Assembly (NCBI GenBank): GCA_021405325.1
Contig: QWII01000071.1
Coordinates: 1 to 50,806, forward strand
Origin: Caldilinea sp. CFX5
GTDB taxonomy: Bacteria; Chloroflexota; Anaerolineae; Caldilineales; Caldilineaceae
Length of the DNA: 50,806 nt
Direction of reading: 5' to 3'
Part shown: piece after piece, positions 38,311-50,401 of the stretch
Position numbering within the stretch: the stretch's first letter is position 1
Layout of the letters: every line of letters begins with the position of its first letter
Notes under the pieces: generated by a model
Told to the model about the DNA's origin: nothing
What the model saw: only the letters and a program-made list of their open reading frames with translations
The model's database searches: none
Program-made: the position numbers and the translations under genes

Positions 38311-38390
38311 CCCGTAGGGGCGTCCGCTTGCCGGCGCCCTATCCGTCTCACGGGCAAACCGGGGCGCCGGCAAGCGGACGCCCCTACGGG
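38311..38390. repeat. 29-bp perfect inverted repeat, GTAGGGGCG family
   Basis: Arms 38311-38339 and 38362-38390 are exact complements, each with a GTAGGGGCGTCCGC core. It marks the junction between the housekeeping genes and the defence-island debris. Confidence 0.9.
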
Positions 38391-38396
38391 ATTACG

Positions 38397-38565
38397 CTAC
38401 GCCGCCGCCAGCGCTTCCGCCAAAGCCGCCTCCAACAACCGCCGCCGCGTAGCCGTGACCGTCGCCAGATTGGCCGCCAGTTCATCGCACAGCGCCAGCA
38501 GTTCGTCCACCCTAGCGACGATGCGCTGTTGTTCGGCGAGGGGTGAGAGGGCGAGCGGTGCTTTC
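38397..38565 (-). pseudogene. type I restriction specificity subunit (HsdS), C-terminal remnant
   Basis: The minus frame ending at TAG 38397-38399 reads PLALSPLAEQQRIVARVDEL, followed by a helix with LCDELAANL and TRRRLLEAALAEALAAA. This is the conserved tail of HsdS after the second target-recognition domain. An in-frame stop lies three codons before PLALSP and nothing upstream resembles the rest of HsdS, nor are hsdM or hsdR present. Confidence 0.75.
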
Positions 38566-38637
38566 TACAGATTAGGTTGGAATAATACATCGTTGGTAAC
38601 AAAACATATTTTCCGAGAAAAGGCAAAAAATGCCCTC

Positions 38638-38800: not shown

Positions 38801-39166
38801 ATGTACATTCTCTATCTTGATGATTCCGGTTCCGTTCACAACGCCAACGAAGCTTATTTCGTCCTTGGTGGCGTCGCCGTCCCTGAACAAAGCATCCGCT
38901 GGCTCTCTCACCAAATCGAACTCCTCGCCCAACAGATTGATCCCACCAACCCGGGACTGGTCGAATTTCACGCCGCCGAAGTCTTCGGTGGCCGCACCGG
39001 CTACTGGAAAAGCATCACCGAAAAACAAAAACGCATCGACATCATCAAAAATGTTCTCGGCGTCATGGGGAAAGCCTACCCCGACATCACCACCTTTGCT
39101 TGCGCTGTCCACAAACAAACCTATAATCCATCCTGCACCTGCCCGGCCTGCATCACCCGTCGCTAA
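38801..39166 (+). CDS. DUF3800 protein, C-terminally truncated
   Basis: A 121-residue protein opening MYILYLDDSGSVHNANEAYFVLGGVAV, the DUF3800 signature, with GLVEFHAAEVFGG further on. DUF3800 proteins are RNase-H-like and common in defence islands and phage genomes, usually 220-260 residues. Here the second half, with its own conserved acidic residues, is missing and the frame ends in an unrelated CTCPACITRR tail just before the palindrome at 39183. Probably a non-functional fragment. Confidence 0.7.
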   Translation: MYILYLDDSGSVHNANEAYFVLGGVAVPEQSIRWLSHQIELLAQQIDPTNPGLVEFHAAEVFGGRTGYWKSITEKQKRIDIIKNVLGVMGKAYPDITTFACAVHKQTYNPSCTCPACITRR

Positions 39167-39272: not shown

Positions 39273-39599
39273 CTAGTGGACGCGTAGTTTTTCGATGGCA
39301 TCGAAAATATTTTCTGCCTCTTTAAAGATGTTTTCTGCTGCACTTTTTTTGTCAGGGGGATATTGATCAGGATGATAATATTTTCGGTACGCTGTTCTAG
39401 CTGCTTTCACTAGAAAGTCCGGCGCACTTGGATGTAAACCAACACTCGCAAACAACGCATGTTGTTCGTTTGGTTCAGGTTGAGGCGCCCCGCTAGAACT
39501 GTGATTTTTTGCTAATTCGGCGATTCGCTCTTCAACAGCTACAAATGATATACTCGTGCAACTTTGGTAATATTCTGTTGGCTTGATAATGCTGGCGTT
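39273..39599 (-). CDS. J-domain (DnaJ-like) protein, 5' end uncertain
   Basis: The frame ends with a recognisable J-domain: HALFASVGLHPSAPDFLVKA, then AYRKYYHPDQ with the HPD tripeptide that stimulates Hsp70, and ENIFDAIEKLR at the end. The frame is open upstream to a stop at 39600-39602, right where the helicase gene ends, but has no ATG or GTG. The only common start, TTG 39455, would cut off the first J-domain turn. It is either the 3' fragment of a larger gene joined to the operon or uses an unusual start. Confidence 0.5.
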   Translation of the reverse strand, partial: NASIIKPTEYYQSCTSISFVAVEERIAELAKNHSSSGAPQPEPNEQHALFASVGLHPSAPDFLVKAARTAYRKYYHPDQYPPDKKSAAENIFKEAENIFDAIEKLRVH

Positions 39600-39604
39600 C
39601 TAGC

Positions 39605-42304
39605 TCACCACGGCGCTGACAAACGCTCGACCACATCGCGCCGGGCCAGGACACGCGAACAGAGTTCCCAGCGGTTCTGATCCGGGTCGATGGTCTCTTT
39701 GTAGCGCAGTTCAAAGACATCACGCGCCTTTTTACGCAGGTGGATATATTCGTCCATCATCGCTTCCAGTTTTTCGATGTTTTCAATCCATTCATCTTCA
39801 ATTGTATCGGGCAGACCGCCGAAAATATCGTATTTATCCTTTAAGCGCTGAGAGAGGACGCTATAGATCTTTTCGTCCTGGGTTTCGTGGTAGACCAGAT
39901 TGAGCATATCCACCGTGCGCCGGGCTTGCCCAAAGCGTTTAATGCGCCCCAACCGCTGCTCTAACCGCGAGGGATTCCACGGCAAGTCAATGTTGATCAA
40001 CGTCCCCAGCGTTTGCAGGTTAAGCCCTTCACAGGCAGCGTCGGTGGCGACGACCAGGCGCAGCTTGCGTTCTTTAACCGCCTGCTTGATCGCCTCACGC
40101 TCAACCGAAGAGAAGGCTTCACCGCCAAAGAGACCGCTTTTGCCCAGACCAGCATAGACCGCCACCGGTTCATTGGGTAAGCTCTTGGCTAACTCACCGG
40201 CAATCCAGAAGGCGGTGTCGTAATATTGGCTAAAGATGATGCAGCCATGTTCCAGCCAGCTTTTCCCGTCGGTACGGTGATCGGTGAGGAAGTAATGAAT
40301 GGCGGCCAGTTTGGGGTCGCGTGCCTCCGGGCGTGACAACTCTTCCACAATGGCGCGCAGGTGGCTGGCCTCGGTTGGCGTCAAAGCACTGAGCGGCTCA
40401 AGCAGGCGGGGCGCGTCCTCATCATCGTCCAGCAGTTCGCCATGTAACATCTTGTGCGCCGTGCCACGACCGGAGGCGAAACTGGAGCAGATACGTTGGA
40501 GCAACAACGTTTTCATAAAGCCGGCCGCTTTGGTGCGCTTTTGTAGGGCGGCGGTGAACTCCTCGGCGGCCTGGTAAGCCAGGTCAAAGGGGTGATTGGT
40601 GAGCAAACCCAAGTCGGTAAAGTTGACGCCAGGATAGGTGCGGGCCGGCGCAGTGGGATTGGGATGCACCTCGACGCCGACGCGCGCCAACAGCCCTGCC
40701 TCTTCCAACGTCTGCCGACGGCGCAGGACCGTGTGGCGGACAATCGGATTGTGTTGCTGGTAAAAGCCGGGTTCCAGGGTTTGCTGCACAGATTGGCGTT
40801 CAAAATAACCAAGCGCGCCAAAGCCGCGATCGGTGAAAAAGAGATGGTCGGGCAGACCCAGTTGGAGCCGCAGGTTGGCAATGAGCAGATCCTGATCGCC
40901 GGGCGGCAAGGGGTTGCGCAGCCATTCCCAGGCCGCACGCTCATCGTTGGGCGTCGCCTCGCCTTTGACCACCGGCAGGGCGCGCACCCAATCCGCCCAC
41001 AAGGTGGCCGGCTCCTTGCCGAGGACAAAATCAGCGCCGGCGTTGAGGATCTGCATCAGATCCCAAAGCTCGGCAACGGCGGTTTGGATCGGCGTCGCCG
41101 TGCCCAGCAGAAGATGCCTGGTGCGCGGCCCGATGCGGAGCATAAAGTCGAGCAGATTGTTGGCCTCCTCCCGCTTTTCCCCCAAGCCGCCGCGCCGCCG
41201 CGCTTTGTGCGCTTCATCGAGAATCACTGTCCCCAATTTGCGTTCGAGCAGGTAACGGCATTCGTCGGCATTCTGGACAATGAGACCGGTGGAGACAATG
41301 GCAATGCGATAGGGGCAGCGGGCAATGTCTTCCACCCCGCGCGTTTTGATGATGTGGCCGTTGGGGTCGATCCAGAGCTTTTTGTTGGAAAGCCAGACCG
41401 CGCTGGGGATGCCCAGTTTGTCCTTCAACTCCACTTGCCACTGCAGGGTGAGGGTGGAAGGACAGAGAATCAGCACCGGCCCATCATCCAGCAAGGCGGC
41501 GACCATGGCGCTGGCCGCCAACGACAACGTCTTGCCGACCCCCACTTCATCGGCGAGGAGGAGACGGGCGCAGCCATAGCTCTCCCGGTGCTTGAGGAAG
41601 AGGGTGACAAAGGCGCGCTGCCAGGGTTGCAGTTGTTCCCCGCCCCGGTAGATCGGGCTTTCGACCAAGGCGGCGGCGGCCAGTTCATCCGGTCGCACGT
41701 CGTCAAAGCGCACTTCGACGCGGCCGGCCACGCGCGCCACCTCTTCAATAATAGCGTTGGGCAAATCATGGCCCAGTTGCCAGAGCGCCTCGAACTCCTC
41801 TTCCACCCAGGCCACACCGGCGGGCGACTGATCTTCCCACAAGATTTCGTAATTTTGGGTAAAAGCGCTTTTGGTCTCATTAATGGAGCCGAGAAAGGCC
41901 GTTTTGGCGCCATCAGCGCCCGTAATAACGCCGGCCTTGCCATGCAAGAAGACGTAGTTCTTCGGCACCACGCGAATCTGGACGCGACCACTGGTCAACA
42001 ATTCGTGGAGCTTGCGGTAACGTTCGCGGTGTAACAGCGCTTCGACTTCGGGGGACGCACTGTTCCAGCGTTCTTTTAAGGCTGTTTCGCGCACCTGTTG
42101 CGAGACCTTGACATCGGCCTCATCCACTTCACTGTTACAGACAATGCGCACATCGGGGATGGCGGCAATGGCCTCGCCCACCAATTCAAAGATCGAGCTG
42201 CGAAAGTAACCGGCAATGCGCTTGTATGATTGGGCGCCCTGTAATTTGGCGTTGAGAAAGGCATGGTCAAGCCGTTGGCGGCGGGAGGAGAAACGGTTGA
42301 TCAT
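39605..42304 (-). CDS. PLD-domain SNF2-family helicase, anti-phage operon
   Basis: An 899-residue protein. The N-terminus carries one phospholipase-D-like half-site (HGKAGVI at about 121-127 with FLGSINET at 138-144). The SNF2/SF2 core follows: Walker A ADEVGVGKTLS (251-261), DEAH box ILDEAHKARR (361-370), motif III LLLGTATP (398-405), and in the second lobe VVATDAACEGLNLQ and WNPSRLEQRLGRIKRFGQ (motifs V and VI). This is the helicase-nuclease part of the DUF499/DUF1156 system. Its ATG overlaps the DUF1016 stop (ATGA), so it is translationally coupled. Confidence 0.9.
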   Translation of the reverse strand: MINRFSSRRQRLDHAFLNAKLQGAQSYKRIAGYFRSSIFELVGEAIAAIPDVRIVCNSEVDEADVKVSQQVRETALKERWNSASPEVEALLHRERYRKLHELLTSGRVQIRVVPKNYVFLHGKAGVITGADGAKTAFLGSINETKSAFTQNYEILWEDQSPAGVAWVEEEFEALWQLGHDLPNAIIEEVARVAGRVEVRFDDVRPDELAAAALVESPIYRGGEQLQPWQRAFVTLFLKHRESYGCARLLLADEVGVGKTLSLAASAMVAALLDDGPVLILCPSTLTLQWQVELKDKLGIPSAVWLSNKKLWIDPNGHIIKTRGVEDIARCPYRIAIVSTGLIVQNADECRYLLERKLGTVILDEAHKARRRGGLGEKREEANNLLDFMLRIGPRTRHLLLGTATPIQTAVAELWDLMQILNAGADFVLGKEPATLWADWVRALPVVKGEATPNDERAAWEWLRNPLPPGDQDLLIANLRLQLGLPDHLFFTDRGFGALGYFERQSVQQTLEPGFYQQHNPIVRHTVLRRRQTLEEAGLLARVGVEVHPNPTAPARTYPGVNFTDLGLLTNHPFDLAYQAAEEFTAALQKRTKAAGFMKTLLLQRICSSFASGRGTAHKMLHGELLDDDEDAPRLLEPLSALTPTEASHLRAIVEELSRPEARDPKLAAIHYFLTDHRTDGKSWLEHGCIIFSQYYDTAFWIAGELAKSLPNEPVAVYAGLGKSGLFGGEAFSSVEREAIKQAVKERKLRLVVATDAACEGLNLQTLGTLINIDLPWNPSRLEQRLGRIKRFGQARRTVDMLNLVYHETQDEKIYSVLSQRLKDKYDIFGGLPDTIEDEWIENIEKLEAMMDEYIHLRKKARDVFELRYKETIDPDQNRWELCSRVLARRDVVERLSAPW

Positions 42305-43416
42305 GGTGCTGGCTTACCCTCCTCAGCAATCTTGTCTAAATCTTGCTGAAGTTCGGCTTCAATGGCCTCAATGCTAGGGAGGGCTGATTGCAGGCTTTCC
42401 GGGAGGGCGCGCGTTAATTCATATTCCGATACGCCAATCGGTTTGTTCATCCCGCGCAGGGCATACTCAGCGACGACGGCATTCTTGCTTTGACAGAGAA
42501 TTAGCCCGATGGTTGGCTGATCGGTATGATGTTTGAGATGATCATCGACAATATTGCAATAGAAATTGATCTTGCCGGCGTATTCAGGCTTGAATTTGCC
42601 TCGCTTTAGCTCAATCACGAAAAAGCAGCGTAGCCGTAGGTGGTAGAAGAGCAGATCGATGTAGAAATCTTCATCACCCACACTCACCAGATATTGACGC
42701 CCAACAAAGGCAAAGCCTTGACCGAGTTGCAACAAGAATTCTTCTAGATGCCGAATCAGGCCAGTTTCCAATTCACGTTCGTGAAAAGGCTCGTCCAGGG
42801 TAAGAAAGTCAAAGAGGTAGGGATCTTTGAGGGTCTGTTGCACCAAGTCGGATTGAGGGGCAGGCAGATGGGTGGCAAAGTTGTTGATCGATCGCCCTTG
42901 CCGGTCGTAGGCCCGTGCTTTGATCATCATGCCGAGGGTGTTGCGGCTCCATCCTTGGGCCAGGGTCTGCTCCATATACCAACGCCGAATCGTGCGGTCT
43001 TTGATTTGTTGCAGCAGGAGAATGTTATGTCCCCAGGGAATTTTTGCAACAAGCTGTTGCAAAATCAGCCGGTTGTCGGCCTCTGTTGCTGCGTCAGTTG
43101 CATCGGGTAATTTTGCAACAGCTTGTTGCAAAATTAGAGGTTCACCATACTCGCGCGCAAATTGCAGCATATAGCCAATGTTGCGTTCTGAAAATCCTTT
43201 GACTTCAGGCAGTTCGTTATGCAAATCGGCGGCAAGCCTGGGAATAAAACCAGCGCCCCATCCTTCCTCCTGTTGCCGCCGCGCAATAAGCTGCCCAATA
43301 TCCCAGTAGAGTTGGATTAGTTCGGCATTGACTGCTACCAGTGCACGGGTTTGCGCCGCACGAATGCGCTGTTTAATGTCACGTAGGAGATCGGCATAAA
43401 GGGTTATCACGTTCAT
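42301..43416 (-). CDS. DUF1016/YhcG-family PD-(D/E)XK nuclease
   Basis: A 371-residue protein. DUF1016 N-terminal domain: LIQLYWDIGQLIARRQ and LPEVKGFSERNIGYMLQFAREY. The C-terminal PD-(D/E)XK nuclease core is FYIDLLFYHLRLRCFFVIELKRG, with Asp254, Glu269 and Lys271. In the middle LILQQ-VAK-P is present twice (about 95-104 and 117-126), an internal duplication also visible in DNA. Start 43416 chosen because AGAGG lies 8 bases upstream. Such proteins often accompany type I restriction or defence genes. Here it is inside the anti-phage operon. Confidence 0.88.
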   Translation of the reverse strand: MNVITLYADLLRDIKQRIRAAQTRALVAVNAELIQLYWDIGQLIARRQQEEGWGAGFIPRLAADLHNELPEVKGFSERNIGYMLQFAREYGEPLILQQAVAKLPDATDAATEADNRLILQQLVAKIPWGHNILLLQQIKDRTIRRWYMEQTLAQGWSRNTLGMMIKARAYDRQGRSINNFATHLPAPQSDLVQQTLKDPYLFDFLTLDEPFHERELETGLIRHLEEFLLQLGQGFAFVGRQYLVSVGDEDFYIDLLFYHLRLRCFFVIELKRGKFKPEYAGKINFYCNIVDDHLKHHTDQPTIGLILCQSKNAVVAEYALRGMNKPIGVSEYELTRALPESLQSALPSIEAIEAELQQDLDKIAEEGKPAP

Positions 43417-43478
43417 AACGGTTACCTCTTGCAAGGAATGAACTTTTGCTACACAAGTCATCCCAATCGTTGCCAGCT

Positions 43479-43507
43479 CAAATCGAGACGCGGTGCGTCT
43501 CGATTTG
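43479..43507. repeat. 13-bp hairpin between methylase and nuclease genes
   Basis: CAAATCGAGACGC and its complement flank three bases in the 142-bp gap. It splits the operon and could reduce or protect the downstream part of the mRNA. Confidence 0.6.
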
Positions 43508-43558
43508 GAAAAAAGAGATAGAATTGCTGCATCTTGCACAGATTGGTGACTTGGCAGT

Positions 43559-46500
43559 TTACCCCAATCGTTGATTGCGCACCAGATCGCGCAGCACACG
43601 CGCAGCGCTGGCTTCTTCGGGGCGCAGGTGTTCGAGATGTTTGGCGAGGTAGGCCGCCAGTTCGATCACCAGGTCGCGCTGGGTCAAGTCGCCGTAGTAG
43701 TTGGGCACATTCAACATCAGGTGAGCCAGCACTTCGGTGCTGTCCACATTTTTGACCAGTTCCAGCATGGCATAGAGGACGGCGCGCAAGGCGGACTGAT
43801 AGAGTTCGGAACTTTCATTCATCTCGCTCTTGCCCAGTTCGACGGCGCTTTTGAGGCGGGCGGCGTTGGCTTTTTGGCTGGCCATGAGCGGGCGAAAATC
43901 GCGCACCTTGAAGGCTTTGGCAAAGTTCTGGTAGTTGTCGAGCGTCTTCTGCCCCTTGGCTTCGAGATCGATCAGCTTGAGATAGAAGCGTTCCGCCGCG
44001 CCCAGGCGATCCCAGTAGGCTTTGGCCAGACCCGGCGGCACAAGACATTGATTGGCGGTGGCAACGGCAAATTCGATCAGCCCATCGACAAAGGTGCTTT
44101 CGCCCTTGAGCCGGGGGCGGCTGGCTTCGACTGTCATATCGCGACCGTCGATGATGGCGTAGCGGGTGAGAACGCGCAGGGCGGCGGCGTAACCGGCCAT
44201 CTGGAGGTCGGCATCTTCAAAGACATTTTCGTCGCGATAGAGACCTTTGGCTTGCTGGTTGAGGCCGGTGAGGGTCGCCACCTGTTGTTCAACTTCTTCC
44301 TGGATCTCCCAGGCCAGTTCGTCGCGCGTGGTCTTGTAAGCGCCCCGGCGTTTGCGCAGCACCAGCAGCACCGTGCCTTTGACATAGCTGCCCTCGCGCA
44401 GCGCGCTGTCAGTTTCAGTGACCACATACCAGGCCGCCGTGACCTGAAGACCGGCCGCCCAGACAATGTTAGCCATGTCAGCCCAGATGGCGCCGGACTG
44501 GTGGGTGAACATGATGACCTGGATGCCGTTGTCGGGCATACATTCGGCCATGCGTTTGTAGGCGGCGATCATGCCCCGCCGGAAATCTTCCCCTTCGCCC
44601 TTGATGGCGAGGGAACGGCGGCTGTCCCAGACCCAATCGGCAAATTCAGGTGGTGGGTTCTTGCGCAGCCAGGCAATGAAGAATTCTAAAATCTCTTCGT
44701 ACTTCACCGCGTCACCATATGGTGGATCAGTGATGAATATCTCGCATTCTTCGGTAATTTGATTTGCAGAACAGCATTTAACGAATGTCCTACTATGAGT
44801 AATTGGAAAGCGCTTGAAATCGGCGAGTACGAGATCCCCCGCATAGGAGATGCCTCTTGTTCCAAGGTTGTAAAGAGTGTTAAGTGCCTGATTGTCAAAA
44901 ACTCCCTGAACCTTGCCAGGACCTTGTGTGTAATCCCATCGGCTCAGGCGAGAACTTTGGTTCAGAATACGTGTTACGCCAAACTTCAGATGTTCATCAC
45001 TATGCCGATTAGAAACGCTTGCCATCAGCAACTGCCGCGGATTGAACAGGTGATGCCAGTGTGTCCAGCCGCGCTCGCGATATAGGCGTTCCGTCTCATC
45101 GCCAGGCTCAATACGCATGTCCGGCACCCACCCTTTGGCCTGCCAGTCAGCCAGATGCTCGGCGACAAAATTCTCAACAACCTGCTCACGTTCCTGGTCT
45201 TCGGCTGTAACGGCGCGAAATTCGTACTCGTCGCTCTTCCCCTTCGGCTTGGGGCGCATCCACTGCACACAGTAGAGACGTTCCTGCAAGATGTCATCAG
45301 GGCGGGGTTTAAAGTCGTGTTTCTCCCAGAGCCGTAACTGATTCCCCGTGCTACCATCAGCTTTGCGGTAGTCACCCCGCAGCGTAGTGATCTTGGTGCG
45401 ATATTCGACGCCGTTAACCGTGTGAAATAAGTACGGATCTTGCCCACGCCCATCCGCGCGTACAGTTCCCTTCTCCGCCGCTGTCAGTTCTTCATCCAAT
45501 ACACCGGTACGGATGGCGATATCGTACCGTTTGTTCCTGGCATCCGGTCGTAGTTCGGCAACGACGCGGTAGCCCTTGCTCACAATCAAGGTGGGCAGCA
45601 GCGGCACCAGCCAACCAGTTTGCGGGCAGCGCGTTTCTACACAGTAGAGAAAGACCTTAGCCCGCCAACCCTTGCCATCGCATTCAACGCCCAGCCGGTC
45701 AATCTCTGCCTGCACGCGGCGTACCAGTTCTGCTTGATCTGCGGCCAGTTTCTCCCGGCTCGCCGGCGAGCCGCCAACGATGTTGAACGCGCCCCAGGTC
45801 AACATACAGGCCACCGGGTTGAGATCCGAGGCATAGACATCACAGCCCAGCCGGGCAGCCTCAAAGGGAATTTGGCCGGAGCCGCAGAAGGTATCGGCCA
45901 GGCGGGGGCGGTGGCCGAAACGCATGATCCCCAGTTGTTCGACCAGTTCGGGAAAGGAACAGGCATGGGTGCCCAGATGTCTGTTGACGGCGTCCCAAAT
46001 GTGGTCGTGGACGGTTTCCATCACTTCCTCTGGACGGTTTGCCGCTTCCACACGGGCGCGATAGCCGGTCTTGGGCAACATCTGCGTCTCTAACCGGCGG
46101 CGTTCCAGTTCGGCAATATCAGTGCGCCAGGCGACCTTCACTTTCTCATAGCCCGGTTGCGACCAATCGATTGGCGCCGATGGAGGTAAAATGCCACCTG
46201 GCTCAACGGTGAAGTAGTCGGTAATGCGGGCAATGGAGAGGGTCGCCAGAATCTCCTTGGGGCGTGGGCGGCGCGGCCAACGTGCGACAAAAGATTCATC
46301 ATCCATGGCCATCAGCTTTTCAAAGATTTCCAGATCGCGTTTGAGGTTGCCGGTGGCCGGCAGCAGACAGCCCAGAATACAGGCTTTGGCCAGAATGAGC
46401 GGCTTGCGCCCCTTCCAATAGCTGCCCAGCGCCGTCAGCGTCTTGCCACTGCCGGCCATCTGCTCCTTGTACGCCTCCGCCGAAAGCTTTTGCACCGGCA

Positions 46501-46561
46501 GCAGTTGCTCAATCAGGGCGGGGGCGTCTTTGAGAGAAAAGGGGATCACAGTGCGGCTCAT
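43559..46561 (-). CDS. DUF1156 adenine-type DNA methyltransferase, anti-phage operon
   Basis: A 1000-residue protein of the DUF1156 family (COG1743, adenine-specific methylase with a Zn-ribbon). SAM-binding motif I is DTFCGSGQIPFEAARLGCDVYASD (about 223-246), catalytic motif IV ITDPPYGD (610-617). A Cys pair at 307-312 (CVETRC), a TGW turn and later CVQW may form the zinc ribbon. Order of motifs is I then IV with a long insertion. It should methylate host DNA so that self is spared. It overlaps the DUF3780 gene by 4 bases. Confidence 0.92.
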   Translation of the reverse strand: MSRTVIPFSLKDAPALIEQLLPVQKLSAEAYKEQMAGSGKTLTALGSYWKGRKPLILAKACILGCLLPATGNLKRDLEIFEKLMAMDDESFVARWPRRPRPKEILATLSIARITDYFTVEPGGILPPSAPIDWSQPGYEKVKVAWRTDIAELERRRLETQMLPKTGYRARVEAANRPEEVMETVHDHIWDAVNRHLGTHACSFPELVEQLGIMRFGHRPRLADTFCGSGQIPFEAARLGCDVYASDLNPVACMLTWGAFNIVGGSPASREKLAADQAELVRRVQAEIDRLGVECDGKGWRAKVFLYCVETRCPQTGWLVPLLPTLIVSKGYRVVAELRPDARNKRYDIAIRTGVLDEELTAAEKGTVRADGRGQDPYLFHTVNGVEYRTKITTLRGDYRKADGSTGNQLRLWEKHDFKPRPDDILQERLYCVQWMRPKPKGKSDEYEFRAVTAEDQEREQVVENFVAEHLADWQAKGWVPDMRIEPGDETERLYRERGWTHWHHLFNPRQLLMASVSNRHSDEHLKFGVTRILNQSSRLSRWDYTQGPGKVQGVFDNQALNTLYNLGTRGISYAGDLVLADFKRFPITHSRTFVKCCSANQITEECEIFITDPPYGDAVKYEEILEFFIAWLRKNPPPEFADWVWDSRRSLAIKGEGEDFRRGMIAAYKRMAECMPDNGIQVIMFTHQSGAIWADMANIVWAAGLQVTAAWYVVTETDSALREGSYVKGTVLLVLRKRRGAYKTTRDELAWEIQEEVEQQVATLTGLNQQAKGLYRDENVFEDADLQMAGYAAALRVLTRYAIIDGRDMTVEASRPRLKGESTFVDGLIEFAVATANQCLVPPGLAKAYWDRLGAAERFYLKLIDLEAKGQKTLDNYQNFAKAFKVRDFRPLMASQKANAARLKSAVELGKSEMNESSELYQSALRAVLYAMLELVKNVDSTEVLAHLMLNVPNYYGDLTQRDLVIELAAYLAKHLEHLRPEEASAARVLRDLVRNQRLG

Positions 46562-47148
46562 CGGCTCTCCTGAAATAGTGGCAAATTGACAGATTCTTCT
46601 TCAACGACGCGGCGGGGCGCCGACAGCCCTTGACGGTGCGGGTGCGCAACCGGCGTATGCTCGCCTTCCGAGAGGGCATGGAAGAGGGCGCGGCGCCAGC
46701 CACGGCCCGTATCTTCGGCGCGACCGGCCTCGGCCACGGTCATGGCAAAGAGCCACCAGCGCTCTTCGGGGCGCAGCGCCGCCCATTTGCTGCCGATCAC
46801 CGGTAGTTGGGCGGGGGTGGCGGTTTCGGCAGCCCAGGCCAGCACACACAACTCCTTGCCCAGCAGCCGATCCACCAGGGTAGGGCCGGTGCGCCAGCGC
46901 GCGGTGGGCGCTTTGGCGCTCTTGAGGCGCAGGTTGAATTCCCGCCGGGCCACCGGTGCAATCGCCGACCACACGGCATGGCTCAAGAGAACGCGCACCT
47001 CGTCGCTGGGGCGACCCCCTTCCAGCCCGCGGTAGCCGAAATCTTCAATAATGCGCACCGGCACCGTGCGGGCCGGGGGAATCTCCACCCGAAACACATG
47101 GGCGCCAAACGCCTCAGGCGCGCCGAAATCGACGGTTTTGGTCAACAT
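46558..47148 (-). CDS. DUF3780 anti-phage-associated protein
   Basis: A 196-residue protein recognised as DUF3780 from GKELCVLAWAAE, the LRPEERWWLFAMTVAEAG block and GRGWRRALFHALSEGE. The family is found almost only next to DUF499 and DUF1156 genes; its biochemical role is unknown. A start at 47148 (MLTKTVDFGAPEAFGAHVF) fits the family. A longer frame upstream would translate the tandem repeat at 47190. Coupled to the methylase by an ATGA overlap. Confidence 0.85.
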   Translation of the reverse strand: MLTKTVDFGAPEAFGAHVFRVEIPPARTVPVRIIEDFGYRGLEGGRPSDEVRVLLSHAVWSAIAPVARREFNLRLKSAKAPTARWRTGPTLVDRLLGKELCVLAWAAETATPAQLPVIGSKWAALRPEERWWLFAMTVAEAGRAEDTGRGWRRALFHALSEGEHTPVAHPHRQGLSAPRRVVEEESVNLPLFQESR

Positions 47149-47179
47149 AAGCCACCCCCGACTAGCGTTACACCCCCTC

Positions 47180-47300
47180 CGCGCCCAGTGGGCCCCCGCC
47201 CCCAGCTTGGGGGAGGAGCCGTGGTTCCCTCTCCAAGCCGGGGAGGAGCCGTGGTTCCCTCCCCAAGCTGGGGAGGGGTAGGGAGGGGTGAATTCCCCAT
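47180..47300. repeat. imperfect tandem repeat in the operon gap
   Basis: Three near-identical copies of a unit of about 32 bases containing GGGGAGGAGCCGTGGTTCCC lie between the DUF499 and DUF3780 genes, ending in GGGGAGGGGTAGGGAGGGG. The sequence is related to the palindrome arms at 27012-27099, so a copy of the same element seems to have landed here and been reshaped. Confidence 0.65.
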
Positions 47301-47314
47301 TTTGCTCTGTTCGC

Positions 47315-50300
47315 TCATTGCTCCACATCCCCATTCTGCAACTCAATGCCCAGCGTGTCGGCAAAGGTTTTGAGATCATAGCCGGAGGCAAAGTGGGCCT
47401 TGCGGAAGGTCATGGAGACCGGCGTGGTCGGCGTGAACTTTTCCAAGACCATTTTGAGCAGCGTCTCCAGAAAGGCGCTATCAACGGCAACCTCACCGAC
47501 ATTGATCCCGATCATCTGGGCGCCCTGGCCCACGGTCAACACAATGCCTTCAAAGGTAGCGGCCTTGTCGCCGGCCTGTTTCAGCCCTGCAAAGGTCTTG
47601 GTGCGAGAGTCGAGCTTATGGGGGGCGCGCGGCGCGACCAGATAGCCAGGTTTGCTTTCATGAAGCTGAATGCCCTTCTTGCCCCTGGCCCCAAAGCGAA
47701 ACTCACTTTTGGCTTCCAGCCCGGCGGCCTCGGCAAAGACGCGCAGCAGCACCTCGCCCTCGCCAATCGCAATCGGCCCGCTGTAGGCAATGCCTTCCCG
47801 CGGTTCGCTGCCGTCAAGCGCGTAGCGGATGGCGCCCGTGGGTGCGACCAAGAGTTCAACAAAGCGTTGGCCCTCCTTGTCAACCAGCAGATTGCGCAGG
47901 ACAAGCTTGTTGGTCCAGGTCACGGGGTCGCCCGTCTCATATTGACCGGAGGGATCCACCACCAGGAAGTTGACGCGCAAGGCGCGGGTAGTCAGCGTCT
48001 GCTCCTTGAGTTGCGGGCTGCTTTCGCTGACCGGGGCATCTTCGGCATAGTAGAGGCGCGGGGCCGGGCCGGCATACTGGGGGTTGACCTGCAGCCGTAC
48101 TTCGCCCTGATCATCCGGCCCGTACTCAACGATCACCTGTACGGCGGTCTTCTTCTTCTTCGGTTTCTTGGTCACATAGCCGTTGCCCAGATCTTCCCAC
48201 AACCCCCGGTTACAGGCCAGCGCCTTGAGCGTTTCCAAGCCCTTGGGCGGCAGCCAGGGCATCCCCGCCTGTTCCGCCATGCGGTCAACAAGATCGGACC
48301 AGCGCGCCTCATCCAGATTTTCCGGCCAGAGCAGATCCTGCGCTTTGTCGCGGATGGCGTCAAACTCCTGCTCTACATCGAGATAGAGCTTGAGCGGATG
48401 GGCGGTCAAGGTCTTTTCGATCTGCGCCTCGCCATCAAAGGCTTTGGCGCCGTCGCGCGTGAGATCGAGCGCTTTGGCGATCAGTTGGGGCGGGCGACCG
48501 GCGCGCTGGATCGGAAAGAGCACCTTGTCAAAAAGACCCAGCACCGAGGCGTTAAAGTCCTGCTCGTAGCTCTGCTGTTTCTTTTCCAACTCCTCACGCT
48601 GGGGATGGCCTTTGGGGATGCGGCTATCGGCCTTTTGCGCGGCAAAGACGTGGCGCGCCGCCTTTTCGACGCTGCCCATCGCCGTCTTGTCGCCGGTCAG
48701 CACGCAGAAATTGTTCTTCTGGCTCTGCGTCTCAAAGAACTTCTGCACTTCCTCTGGCGGAATCTTGGAGTCCGGGCTAACTACCAGCAGCACTCGGCCA
48801 CGGCGCACCCGGTCAGCCACTTCGTCAAGCCGCGGCAGCGCGAGCACCTCTTCATAGCAGGTTTTGCGGTTGGCCTTAAACATGGTAGCGAGGCGATGGC
48901 AAATCAGGTTAGCCACCTGGGGTTCCGGGGCATCGGTCGCCAGCCCTTGCAACAGCTTGGTCAAGTTCTCCTGACGGTCAAAGTAGTAGCGCCCTTCGGC
49001 GTTGTGGTGGAGATACCAGGCCGACTTTTCCAGCTCGGCAAAGGCTGTGAGAAAATCGCTCGGTTCATGCAAGGGCGAGAGCAGACATTCCACCATCTCC
49101 GCGGCGGTCAAGCCTTTGACGGCATTGACGGCGGTGGAAAGGCTGGTGGTAAAGAGCAAAGCGCCGACCTGAGTGGCCGCTTCACTGCCGCGCCGGAGAT
49201 CAATCAGTTGGGCATGGGCCGACTGGTTGGCATCCCAGAGATCTTTGGCAATGACATCGCGCATCCCGGAGATCTCGGTGAGCTTGTCGCGCACCTCGCT
49301 AATACTCAGGTCAAAATGTTGCGGGCCAATCAGAAAGACATCATTCGCCGGTCGCTCCCAGACCGAACGAAGCAGCCGGGAGATCAGTTCGATCAAGCCG
49401 CGGGTCTGTTTGAATTGCTCGTTCTCTTTGAAGAGCGCAATCATATTCTTGAGGCGGGGATGGAAGGGATAGGTTGCCACAATTTCATCGGCAATCGCCT
49501 CGGCGCCGCGGTCGGCTACTTTGGCCTTGGCAGCCTCTTCCAGCTTGCGCCCATAGGCATCGGCAATGTCGGCAATCACGGCGCGGTCGGGGAGACATTT
49601 GAAGAGGCGCTTGCGCAGAATATCATAGATCTCATTGGCGGCCAGATCGACGGGGGTGATATTCCGCTCCTGCCGCCCTAGCTCCTGGCGGGCATTCTCA
49701 AGCGCCCGATTGATCAAGGCGCCGCCGGTCTGATAGGCCGCCCACAGATCTGAGATGACGACACAGACATTGGCCTTCTTGCTGGCGGCGGTGAGCAAAT
49801 TAGCAAAGGCGCGTGTGGCAATGTCGGCCACCGTGCCGGCGCCAATGGGGCGCGTCGCCAAATCTTCAAAGTAGGGCGGCATCTCATCCAACAGGATCAG
49901 GATGGGCTGATCGCCGGCAAACAATTTGAGCCAGGCGCGCTCATCCGGCGCCTTTGGCCCGGAGGCCCAATACTCTTGAAAATGCTCGGCCTTGCCCAGT
50001 TGACAGGCAATTTCGCCCCAGAAGAAGTGGGGCGGGCTGTTACGGCCATTGAAAGCCGCAATCTGGGCGCAGTGGAAGGCATTGGCGTAGGGCATCCCGG
50101 CGCAATATTTTTGGCGCAAGGCGGGATGACGGGCCAGCAGGCCAAAGCCGACCAACAGGTGGGTTTTACCGCCACCCATGGCCTGCTTCAGGTGAAAAAT
50201 CGCCTGGGTCGAGGCGCCGGCCAGCCGGGCGATTCCCTCGCTGATCAGATCCTGCATCCCTTGGGTGATATAGGTTTTTTCAAAAAAGGCAACGCCATCG

Positions 50301-50401
50301 CCTTCAGCACAGATCAACTCGTCAAGTTGCTCCACTTGATCGCTGATCTTGATGGCAAGGGCATTCGGTTGAAGATGACAAGCATCGCGGACCGTTCTCA
50401 T
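47315..50401 (-). CDS. DUF499 AAA-type ATPase, anti-phage operon
   Basis: A 1028-residue protein of the DUF499 family (COG1483). P-loop QAMGGGKTH at about 73-81 and Walker B ILILLDEMPPY at 167-177. ISDLWAAYQTGG may be a sensor-like strand. The C-terminal part is alpha-helical and beta-rich, and a Lys stretch (TKKPKKKK) occurs near residue 738. First gene of the operon. Large ATPases of this kind are thought to sense or remodel invading DNA. ATG 50401 has no clear ribosome binding site. Confidence 0.9.
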   Translation of the reverse strand: MRTVRDACHLQPNALAIKISDQVEQLDELICAEGDGVAFFEKTYITQGMQDLISEGIARLAGASTQAIFHLKQAMGGGKTHLLVGFGLLARHPALRQKYCAGMPYANAFHCAQIAAFNGRNSPPHFFWGEIACQLGKAEHFQEYWASGPKAPDERAWLKLFAGDQPILILLDEMPPYFEDLATRPIGAGTVADIATRAFANLLTAASKKANVCVVISDLWAAYQTGGALINRALENARQELGRQERNITPVDLAANEIYDILRKRLFKCLPDRAVIADIADAYGRKLEEAAKAKVADRGAEAIADEIVATYPFHPRLKNMIALFKENEQFKQTRGLIELISRLLRSVWERPANDVFLIGPQHFDLSISEVRDKLTEISGMRDVIAKDLWDANQSAHAQLIDLRRGSEAATQVGALLFTTSLSTAVNAVKGLTAAEMVECLLSPLHEPSDFLTAFAELEKSAWYLHHNAEGRYYFDRQENLTKLLQGLATDAPEPQVANLICHRLATMFKANRKTCYEEVLALPRLDEVADRVRRGRVLLVVSPDSKIPPEEVQKFFETQSQKNNFCVLTGDKTAMGSVEKAARHVFAAQKADSRIPKGHPQREELEKKQQSYEQDFNASVLGLFDKVLFPIQRAGRPPQLIAKALDLTRDGAKAFDGEAQIEKTLTAHPLKLYLDVEQEFDAIRDKAQDLLWPENLDEARWSDLVDRMAEQAGMPWLPPKGLETLKALACNRGLWEDLGNGYVTKKPKKKKTAVQVIVEYGPDDQGEVRLQVNPQYAGPAPRLYYAEDAPVSESSPQLKEQTLTTRALRVNFLVVDPSGQYETGDPVTWTNKLVLRNLLVDKEGQRFVELLVAPTGAIRYALDGSEPREGIAYSGPIAIGEGEVLLRVFAEAAGLEAKSEFRFGARGKKGIQLHESKPGYLVAPRAPHKLDSRTKTFAGLKQAGDKAATFEGIVLTVGQGAQMIGINVGEVAVDSAFLETLLKMVLEKFTPTTPVSMTFRKAHFASGYDLKTFADTLGIELQNGDVEQ

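What the first reader, a model, noticed from the sequence alone, without database searches (positions are those of the whole stretch)
39605..50401. DUF499-DUF3780-DUF1156-DUF1016-PLD/helicase anti-phage operon
Five co-oriented genes, with ATGA overlaps at two junctions, encode an ATPase, a partner of unknown function, an adenine-type methylase, a PD-(D/E)XK nuclease and a PLD-SNF2 helicase. Known from the families: DUF499, DUF1156 and DUF3780 are labelled anti-phage-associated, and a helicase-methylase-ATPase set (hma, as I recall it) has been catalogued computationally. Mechanism is essentially unknown. Inference: self/non-self discrimination by methylation, with ATPase-helicase-nuclease attack on unmodified DNA.
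Basis: partly seen in the sequence, partly recalled or inferred. Interest (0 to 1): 0.85.

Follow-up and report, generated by a model that had tools for sequence, protein, structure and literature searches.

The report
BREX-related operon with swappable effector slot
This is a recently described kind of bacterial anti-virus operon that resembles restriction-modification systems; its one unusual gene, a nuclease, sits at a place where relatives carry other toxin or defence genes, apparently a swappable slot tied to the gene behind it.

Summary
The five genes are real, intact and correctly placed. Four are the curated "anti-phage-associated" set (NCBIfam NF042961-NF042964 above cut-off; PADLOC PDLC02189, 02191-02193): by sequence a Type-2 BREX-Related (BR) system (PMC12839542), not PADLOC Hma. 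The core is known. The DUF1016/YhcG nuclease is no core member: tblastn finds it in 2 of 96 related loci, at another junction. It occupies a cargo slot between methyltransferase and PLD-helicase. Inserts fill that slot in 31 of 71 loci (28 identifiable, 15 kinds, many toxin-antitoxin or effector genes). In 20 of 31 the last insert gene overlaps the helicase start by exactly four bases, as here; in 0 of 40 loci without insert does the methyltransferase (kinship-aware sign test, median p 0.016). The window's two nearest helicase relatives carry different cargo; DUF1016 has atypical GC3 (0.52 against 0.67-0.75). Best reading: a restriction-like system with a swappable auxiliary effector coupled to the helicase; coupling and function are inferred, untested. 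Side finding: some phages carry DUF3780 alone.

The parts
47315..50401 (-). DUF499 AAA+ ATPase (1028 aa) with an Fn3-associated region near the C-terminus; first gene
   Evidence: NF042962 1461 bits, cut-off 1200; PDLC02192 1582 bits; Fn3_assoc 853-894; GGGKT and LLDE conserved in 79 homologues
47149..47314 (.). 166-nt spacer with a 30-nt repeat in two adjoining copies (47210-47239, 47240-47269); relatives mostly have a 4-nt overlap here
   Evidence: 61 of 83 short junctions overlap by 4
46558..47148 (-). DUF3780 protein (196 aa), signature gene of Type-2 BR systems
   Evidence: NF042961 217.8 bits, cut-off 200; PF12635 7.7e-65; start inferred from alignments
46558..46561 (-). ATGA overlap: DUF3780 stop / methyltransferase start
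   Evidence: coordinates
43559..46561 (-). DUF1156 amino-methyltransferase (1000 aa); motifs DTFCGSG and DPPY
   Evidence: NF042963 1335 bits, cut-off 1000; motifs
43417..43558 (.). 142-nt spacer before the cargo gene: 13-bp perfect hairpin (43479-43507) and, at 43462-43472, a copy of 11 nt near the methyltransferase end (43563-43573); both copies can be read as QRLG-stop; possible recombination scar, but a two-copy repeat this short may be chance
42301..43416 (-). Cargo gene: DUF1016/YhcG PD-(D/E)XK nuclease (371 aa), GC3 0.52
   Evidence: YhcG_C 2.9e-66, DUF1016_N 1.6e-41; PDC-S02; D254 and K271 invariant in 30 sequences; GC3
42301..42304 (-). ATGA overlap: cargo stop / helicase start
   Evidence: 4-nt overlap of an insert gene with the helicase in 19 other loci
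39605..42304 (-). PLD (HKD-type) nuclease fused to SNF2-family helicase (899 aa), predicted primary effector; last gene
   Evidence: NF042964 1230 bits, cut-off 1100; H121, K123, N142 invariant in 69 homologues plus the window

Best explanation
A Type-2 BREX-Related, restriction-modification-like system with an exchangeable auxiliary effector in a slot coupled to the helicase. Inferred mechanism of the core: the DUF1156 methyltransferase marks host DNA; the DUF499 AAA+ ATPase assembles on and surveys DNA; DUF3780 acts as reader or adaptor; on unmodified DNA the PLD-SNF2 helicase translocates and its PLD domain cuts. Shown here: family membership, conserved motifs, conserved order, and that DUF1016 sits where relatives carry other genes, with a 4-nt overlap to the helicase start. 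Inferred: that the overlap makes effector and helicase be translated together, and that the DUF1016 nuclease is a second, probably less discriminating DNA-cutting layer that works when the core is overwhelmed or blocked.
For: Equivalog matches for four core proteins. Same order DUF499-DUF3780-methyltransferase-helicase in 71 of 71 loci with all four on one strand, and in viral contigs. Inserts over 250 bp: 31 of 71 methyltransferase/helicase junctions, 12 of 81 DUF3780/methyltransferase, 3 of 88 DUF499/DUF3780. The last insert ORF overlaps the helicase start by 4 nt in 20 of 31 insert loci, against 0 of 40 without insert (Fisher 3.8e-10, blind to kinship; 2 of 40 could use another start at -4). 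Kinship-aware: in 10 independent pairs that differ in cargo, the overlap goes with the cargo in 6.7 on average and against it in 0 (median p 0.016, range 0.008-0.063). Eight of 15 insert kinds show it. Cargo state changes at least 20 times on a tree of helicases with the three doubtful loci left out; the window's clade (SH-aLRT 99) has three members with three different cargos. Cargo GC3 lies outside the core range in 23 of 29 loci. HKD residues are invariant over 69 homologues with and without cargo, so cargo does not merely replace a lost nuclease in this sample.
Against: No experiment on this operon or, in what I read, on any Type-2 BR system. 4-nt overlaps are common in operons (61 of 83 short DUF499/DUF3780 junctions, 35 of 68 short DUF3780/methyltransferase junctions), so coupling is inferred from position alone. 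DUF1016 at this slot is seen in one locus, the window. DUF1016 is very widespread elsewhere (7,989 homologues at E 1e-60 among the candidates scored), and the nearest (80%) come from unknown contexts. 11 of 31 insert loci lack the overlap, one of them (L042) with cargo on the opposite strand; in L010 the overlapping ORF is a 120-aa ORF of doubtful nature behind the cargo gene.
Confidence: 0.62

Rival explanations
1. DUF1016 is a hitch-hiker. Defence genes pile up in islands; an operon junction before the last gene tolerates insertions, and the 4-nt overlap is merely the usual way bacterial operons compact. The nuclease acts, if at all, independently.
For: DUF1016 is widespread; GC3 is atypical; cargo turns over quickly; 11 of 31 inserts lack the overlap; 4-nt overlaps are common at the other junctions too; the flank holds other apparent gene remnants.
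Against: Inserts are strongly biased to one junction (31 of 71 against 3 of 88), and the 4-nt overlap is with the helicase far more often than with the methyltransferase (20 of 31 against 2 of 30); identified kinds are mostly toxin-antitoxin, nuclease or other defence families, though several have no family.
Confidence: 0.22
2. DUF1016 is an integral restriction subunit here: a second DNA nuclease recruited to DNA engaged by the DUF499/helicase complex.
For: PD-(D/E)XK motif residues conserved; overlap with the helicase; PD-(D/E)XK enzymes are named as the most prevalent auxiliary effectors of BREX/BR systems in PMC12839542 section 35.
Against: The same slot in the closest relatives holds proteins of families not known to me as DNA nucleases (AbiJ_NTD4, DUF4062-HATPase), and 40 of 71 loci have no insert there.
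Confidence: 0.14
3. Not a BR system but PADLOC Hma or a type-I-like restriction system.
For: Weak matches to HmaA, HmaB and HmaC.
Against: Scores about 9 to 17 times lower than for the DUF499, DUF1156_MTase and PLD_Helicase models; DUF3780 and the N-terminal PLD are present; none of the five genes matches a type I specificity subunit.
Confidence: 0.02

Closest known systems
Type-2 BREX-Related (BR) system, Rakesh & Krishnan, NAR 2026 (PMC12839542)
   Same: DUF499 ATPase, stand-alone DUF3780, DUF1156 methyltransferase, HKD(PLD)-SNF2 helicase; Fn3-like region in DUF499
   Different: Extra DUF1016/YhcG nuclease inside the core. The paper describes auxiliary nucleases in or near BREX/BR loci in general; DUF1016, YhcG, COG4804, DarT, VapC and DUF4062 have 0 occurrences in its main text. 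Its supplement was not open to me.
PADLOC Hma (Payne et al. 2021, PMC8565338, passages)
   Same: Helicase, methylase, ATPase trio
   Different: Three-gene operon; here DUF3780 is present and the Hma models match only weakly
COG1743-DUF499-SWI2/SNF2-nuclease operon with EVE protein (PMC7641849, passages)
   Same: Methyltransferase, DUF499, SNF2 helicase fused to PD-(D/E)XK or PLD nuclease
   Different: No EVE gene among the five genes; DUF3780 and DUF1016 present
PDC-S02 / YhcG (DUF1016) nucleases
   Same: The cargo protein: YhcG_C plus DUF1016_N
   Different: PMC1189080 (passages) found no general gene association and one case beside a type I restriction cluster; here the gene lies inside a BR core

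Membership tests
Type-2 BR system | DUF499 ATPase of the anti-phage type | tested here: met
   NF042962 above cut-off
Type-2 BR system | Stand-alone DUF3780 in the core (98% of taxa in the paper) | tested here: met
   NF042961 217.8 bits against 200
Type-2 BR system | DUF1156 amino-methyltransferase | tested here: met
   NF042963, PF06634
Type-2 BR system | HKD/PLD domain at the N-terminus of an SNF2 helicase | tested here: met
   PLDc_2 20-175, then SNF2 239-423; H121, K123, N142 invariant
Type-2 BR system | Two FnIII-like domains before a C-terminal RRM in DUF499 (53% of taxa in the paper) | tested here: inconclusive
   One Fn3_assoc region at 853-894; second copy and RRM not resolved, DUF499 was not folded
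Type-2 BR system | No N-terminal TUDOR in the helicase | tested here: inconclusive
   No TUDOR among the Pfam matches; PLD match begins at residue 20
Type-2 BR system | DUF499 in the Type-2 clade of the published tree | not tested
   no Type-1 or Type-3 sequences were gathered
Type-2 BR system | Phage protection with methylation of host DNA | not testable with these tools
   needs experiment
PADLOC Hma | HmaA, HmaB, HmaC as best models | tested here: not met
   118, 87 and 169 bits against 1477, 1479 and 1582 for the other set
YhcG/DUF1016 nuclease (cargo gene) | YhcG_C PD-(D/E)XK motif with DUF1016_N | tested here: met
   D254 and K271 invariant; E in the window at 269, D or E in the sequences shown

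The most novel reading that the evidence does not exclude
Type-2 BR operons have a dedicated socket before the helicase-nuclease gene. Whatever effector sits there (DarTG, DUF4062-HATPase, VapC, OLD/TOPRIM, DUF1016) is made in step with the helicase and held or watched by the core complex, so that a phage which blocks restriction releases a second, cell-sacrificing layer. The window shows a DUF1016 nuclease recently plugged into it.
Probability: 0.27. Interest if true: 0.78.

Novelty: new variant of a known kind. Interest (0 to 1): 0.55.

Why it matters
Backup effectors beside BREX-like systems have been catalogued, but what makes them part of a system rather than neighbours is open. A preferred junction, a recurrent 4-nt overlap with the helicase across different effectors, and fast swapping give a concrete, testable rule: the helicase gene is the docking point. 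If true, unknown proteins found in this slot (such as the 173-aa protein of L063 or the 607/553-aa pair of L097) are predicted anti-phage effectors, and effectors could be exchanged in the laboratory to test the guard idea. The stand-alone DUF3780 genes in phages point at the DUF3780 protein as a possible target of phage counter-defence.

Tried and rejected

Near-duplicates above 90% DNA identity in the helicase were kept (L009/L012, L015/L017/L054, L025/L049, L072/L096, L092/L093); loci without a helicase were not checked for duplicates. Viral loci L099-L131 were not counted. Insert genes are mechanical ORFs of 55 aa or more with longest-ORF starts. L021 holds only a repeat-like ORF and L082/L083 no convincing cargo, yet all three count among the 31; one search gave 23 (states) and 16 (presence) changes with L021, L082 and L083 bearing labels, one search gives 20 and 14 without them. 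The GC3 counts include L021 and L082, and its control includes L066. L044 and L081 show no methyltransferase by tblastn, and L040 has a DUF1156 homologue on the other strand. The tree is a quick LG+G4 tree with long branches that meet; L048 and L089 have long ends, perhaps partly from frame breaks.
Full report
What is there. Searches confirm five minus-strand genes at 39605-50401: DUF499 ATPase, DUF3780, DUF1156 methyltransferase, DUF1016/YhcG nuclease, PLD-SNF2 helicase. Four match NCBIfam equivalogs named anti-phage-associated (or anti-phage protein) above their cut-offs (1461/1200, 218/200, 1335/1000, 1230/1100 bits) and PADLOC models PDLC02192, PDLC02191, PDLC02189 and PDLC02193. The DUF1016 protein has no NCBIfam match at E 0.001 and is PADLOC PDC-S02. 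Starts supported by homology are 47148 (DUF3780) and 43416 (DUF1016). ATGA overlaps lie at 46558-46561 and 42301-42304. Key motif residues are conserved: helicase HGK, GSxN, GxGKT, DEAH (69 homologues), methyltransferase DxFxGxG and DPPY (69), DUF499 GGGKT and LLDE (79), DUF3780 LGxEL and ERWW (49).

What it belongs to. PMC12839542 (sections 12, 28, 29, 30 and 35 read; other passages; supplement not open) defines Type-2 BREX-Related systems by this core: DUF499, DUF1156 N6-methyltransferase, HKD-SNF2 helicase and DUF3780 (1,120 taxa; DUF3780 in 98%). It proposes RM-like action with DUF3780 as reader, and reports auxiliary nucleases embedded in or beside BREX/BR loci. Earlier notes of such neighbourhoods: PMC3710099 and PMC7641849 (passages). 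PADLOC Hma (PMC8565338, passages) is a three-gene relative; its models score far lower here.

Is DUF1016 part of the set? One region (L066) repeated L021 and was dropped. By tblastn a DUF1016 was found in only L011 and L016 of 96 other loci, both between DUF3780 and methyltransferase (L016 has two). Many loci are short contigs, so this is a floor. DUF1016 thus lies at two different places of the operon in different lineages.

The slot. Over all usable junctions, inserts above 250 bp sit at 31 of 71 methyltransferase/helicase, 12 of 81 DUF3780/methyltransferase and 3 of 88 DUF499/DUF3780 junctions. Twenty-eight of the 31 hold identifiable cargo of 15 kinds: DarT-DarG (6 loci), DUF4062+HATPase_c_4 (7), DUF1016 (the window), PDC-S14, an unknown 173-aa protein, AAA_21 with DUF4276/OLD-like TOPRIM (2), PIN/VapC, a pair whose first protein has sub-threshold AAA matches, GmrSD, AbiJ_NTD4, nucleotidyltransferase with HepT (2, in L078 the nucleotidyltransferase only, by eye), TumE (antisense), Schlafen AlbA_2+HATPase_c_4, HATPase_c_3 with Methyltransf_35, and a three-gene cluster with one ParA-like protein. 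The Schlafen and DUF4062 kinds share HATPase_c_4. Scanned members were L004 for DarTG, L013 and L016 for DUF4062, L069 for OLD/TOPRIM; the other members of these kinds (L003, L007, L009, L012, L041; L010, L014, L022, L026, L033; L070) were placed by BLAST clustering or, for L070, by eye.

The overlap. In 20 of 31 insert loci the last insert ORF overlaps the helicase start by exactly 4 nt (eight kinds; in L010 the overlapping ORF is a doubtful 120-aa ORF behind the DUF4062 gene). None of 40 insert-free loci has that, 2 of 40 if another in-frame start is allowed. Taking kinship into account, 10 independent pairs on supported branches that differ in cargo show the overlap going with cargo in 6.7 on average, against it in 0, no difference in 3.3; median p 0.016, range 0.008 to 0.063. 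The first insert ORF begins 9 to 23 nt behind the methyltransferase in 17 of 30 loci and overlaps it by 4 nt in 2 of 30; without insert the helicase begins 1 to 13 nt behind it in 32 of 40. The second codon of the helicase begins with A in 29 of 31 insert loci and 14 of 40 others.

Turnover. On a quick tree of 71 helicases, with three doubtful loci not counted, at least 20 changes of cargo state are needed, 14 for presence/absence (23 and 16 with them). The window (DUF1016), L016 (DUF4062-HATPase) and L053 (AbiJ) form a clade with SH-aLRT 99. Cargo GC3 is outside the range of the core genes in 23 of 29 loci, on average 0.10 lower; the control, helicase against the other core genes, is +0.01 (sd 0.046, n 72). 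In the window it is 0.52 against 0.67-0.75. The 142-nt spacer upstream of DUF1016 holds a 13-bp perfect hairpin and a second copy of 11 nt from the methyltransferase end; both copies can be read as QRLG-stop. That could be a recombination scar; so short a repeat may also be chance.

How it most likely works. Core (inference from families and PMC12839542): methyltransferase marks self; DUF499 and DUF3780 survey; PLD-SNF2 helicase attacks unmarked DNA. Slot (inference from this work): an effector whose synthesis is tied to the helicase. Because the neighbours of this DUF1016 in the tree carry abortive-infection-type or unknown proteins at the same site, I favour a backup effector over an integral restriction subunit, and rate a plain hitch-hiker at 0.22.

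Against this reading: coupling is inferred from overlap alone; 4-nt overlaps are common at the other junctions of the same operon; near-duplicates were kept in the plain counts; 11 of 31 inserts lack the overlap; DUF1016 at this slot is a single case; no experiment on Type-2 BR was seen.

Is it in print? Searches covered DUF3780/DUF1156/DUF499, DUF1016/YhcG, DarTG with BREX/RM, Hma and coupling terms. I saw the listings (often the best 8 to 40 rows only), and read passages or sections of the papers named, plus passages of PMC11341870 and PMC10865869. None that I read describes a preferred junction with helicase overlap, or DUF1016 or DarTG in Type-2 BR; supplements were not read, so this is no claim of absence from print.

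Side finding. Of 28 viral-contig loci with DUF3780, 22 also show two or three other core genes and six (L107, L125, L126, L127, L129, L130) show DUF3780 alone in the stretch held. Proteus phage Pm34 carries DUF3780 beside a piece matching the last 184 aa of DUF499 (31% identity). Neighbours include a terminase (L107), a Sak4-like annealing protein (L125) and exonucleases (L126, L129). The L125 protein has nine close relatives of 154-157 aa (59-91% identity); the rest of the 120 listed of 811 are at most 51% identical.

Noticed in passing
L085:5953-6468 (Proteus phage vB_PvuS_Pm34 gp4), L107:5992-6447, L125:5881-6354, L126:5881-6357, L127:931-1407, L129:2784-3458, L130:5695-6330: Phages or viral contigs carry DUF3780 without the whole operon, several beside recombination or packaging genes; candidate counter-defence proteins or decoys. 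The four of them scanned (L085, L125, L127, L129) match no PHROG.
   Followed up: partly
L085:5380-5907: Phage Pm34 gp5 is an open reading frame matching the last part of DUF499 (residues 845-1028, 31% identity).
   Followed up: partly
L101:6624-8350: In this viral-contig operon a DarT-like and a macro-domain-like (DarG) gene, judged by eye, lie between DUF3780 and methyltransferase instead of before the helicase; L102 and L103 have gaps of like size, not read.
   Followed up: partly
L010, L013, L014, L016, L022, L026, L033: The most frequent slot cargo is a DUF4062 + HATPase_c_4 protein of about 490-570 aa; its function is unknown to me.
   Followed up: no
L063:16687-17208; L097:7038-10498: Slot genes without a confident Pfam family (173 aa; 607 and 553 aa), the last overlapping the helicase start by 4 nt; predicted effectors.
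   Followed up: partly
window 38384-38570 (-): A frame reads [49 protein letters not shown], which I recall as a type I HsdS C-terminal end; apparently a remnant beside the operon.
   Followed up: partly
window 38801-39166 (+) and about 39284-39600 (-): Short DUF3800 match (Pfam 21.8 bits, cut-off 21) and a frame with an HPD motif resembling a J domain (recalled).
   Followed up: no
window 38311-38390: 29-nt perfect inverted repeat with 22-nt loop; no further copy of its 26-nt core in the window.
   Followed up: partly
L086:1-1840: Tn7-like tnsD/tnsE genes stand upstream of the BR operon on an Acinetobacter plasmid.
   Followed up: no
L040:1-2367 (-): A DUF1156 homologue lies divergent to the DUF499-DUF3780 pair.
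   Followed up: no
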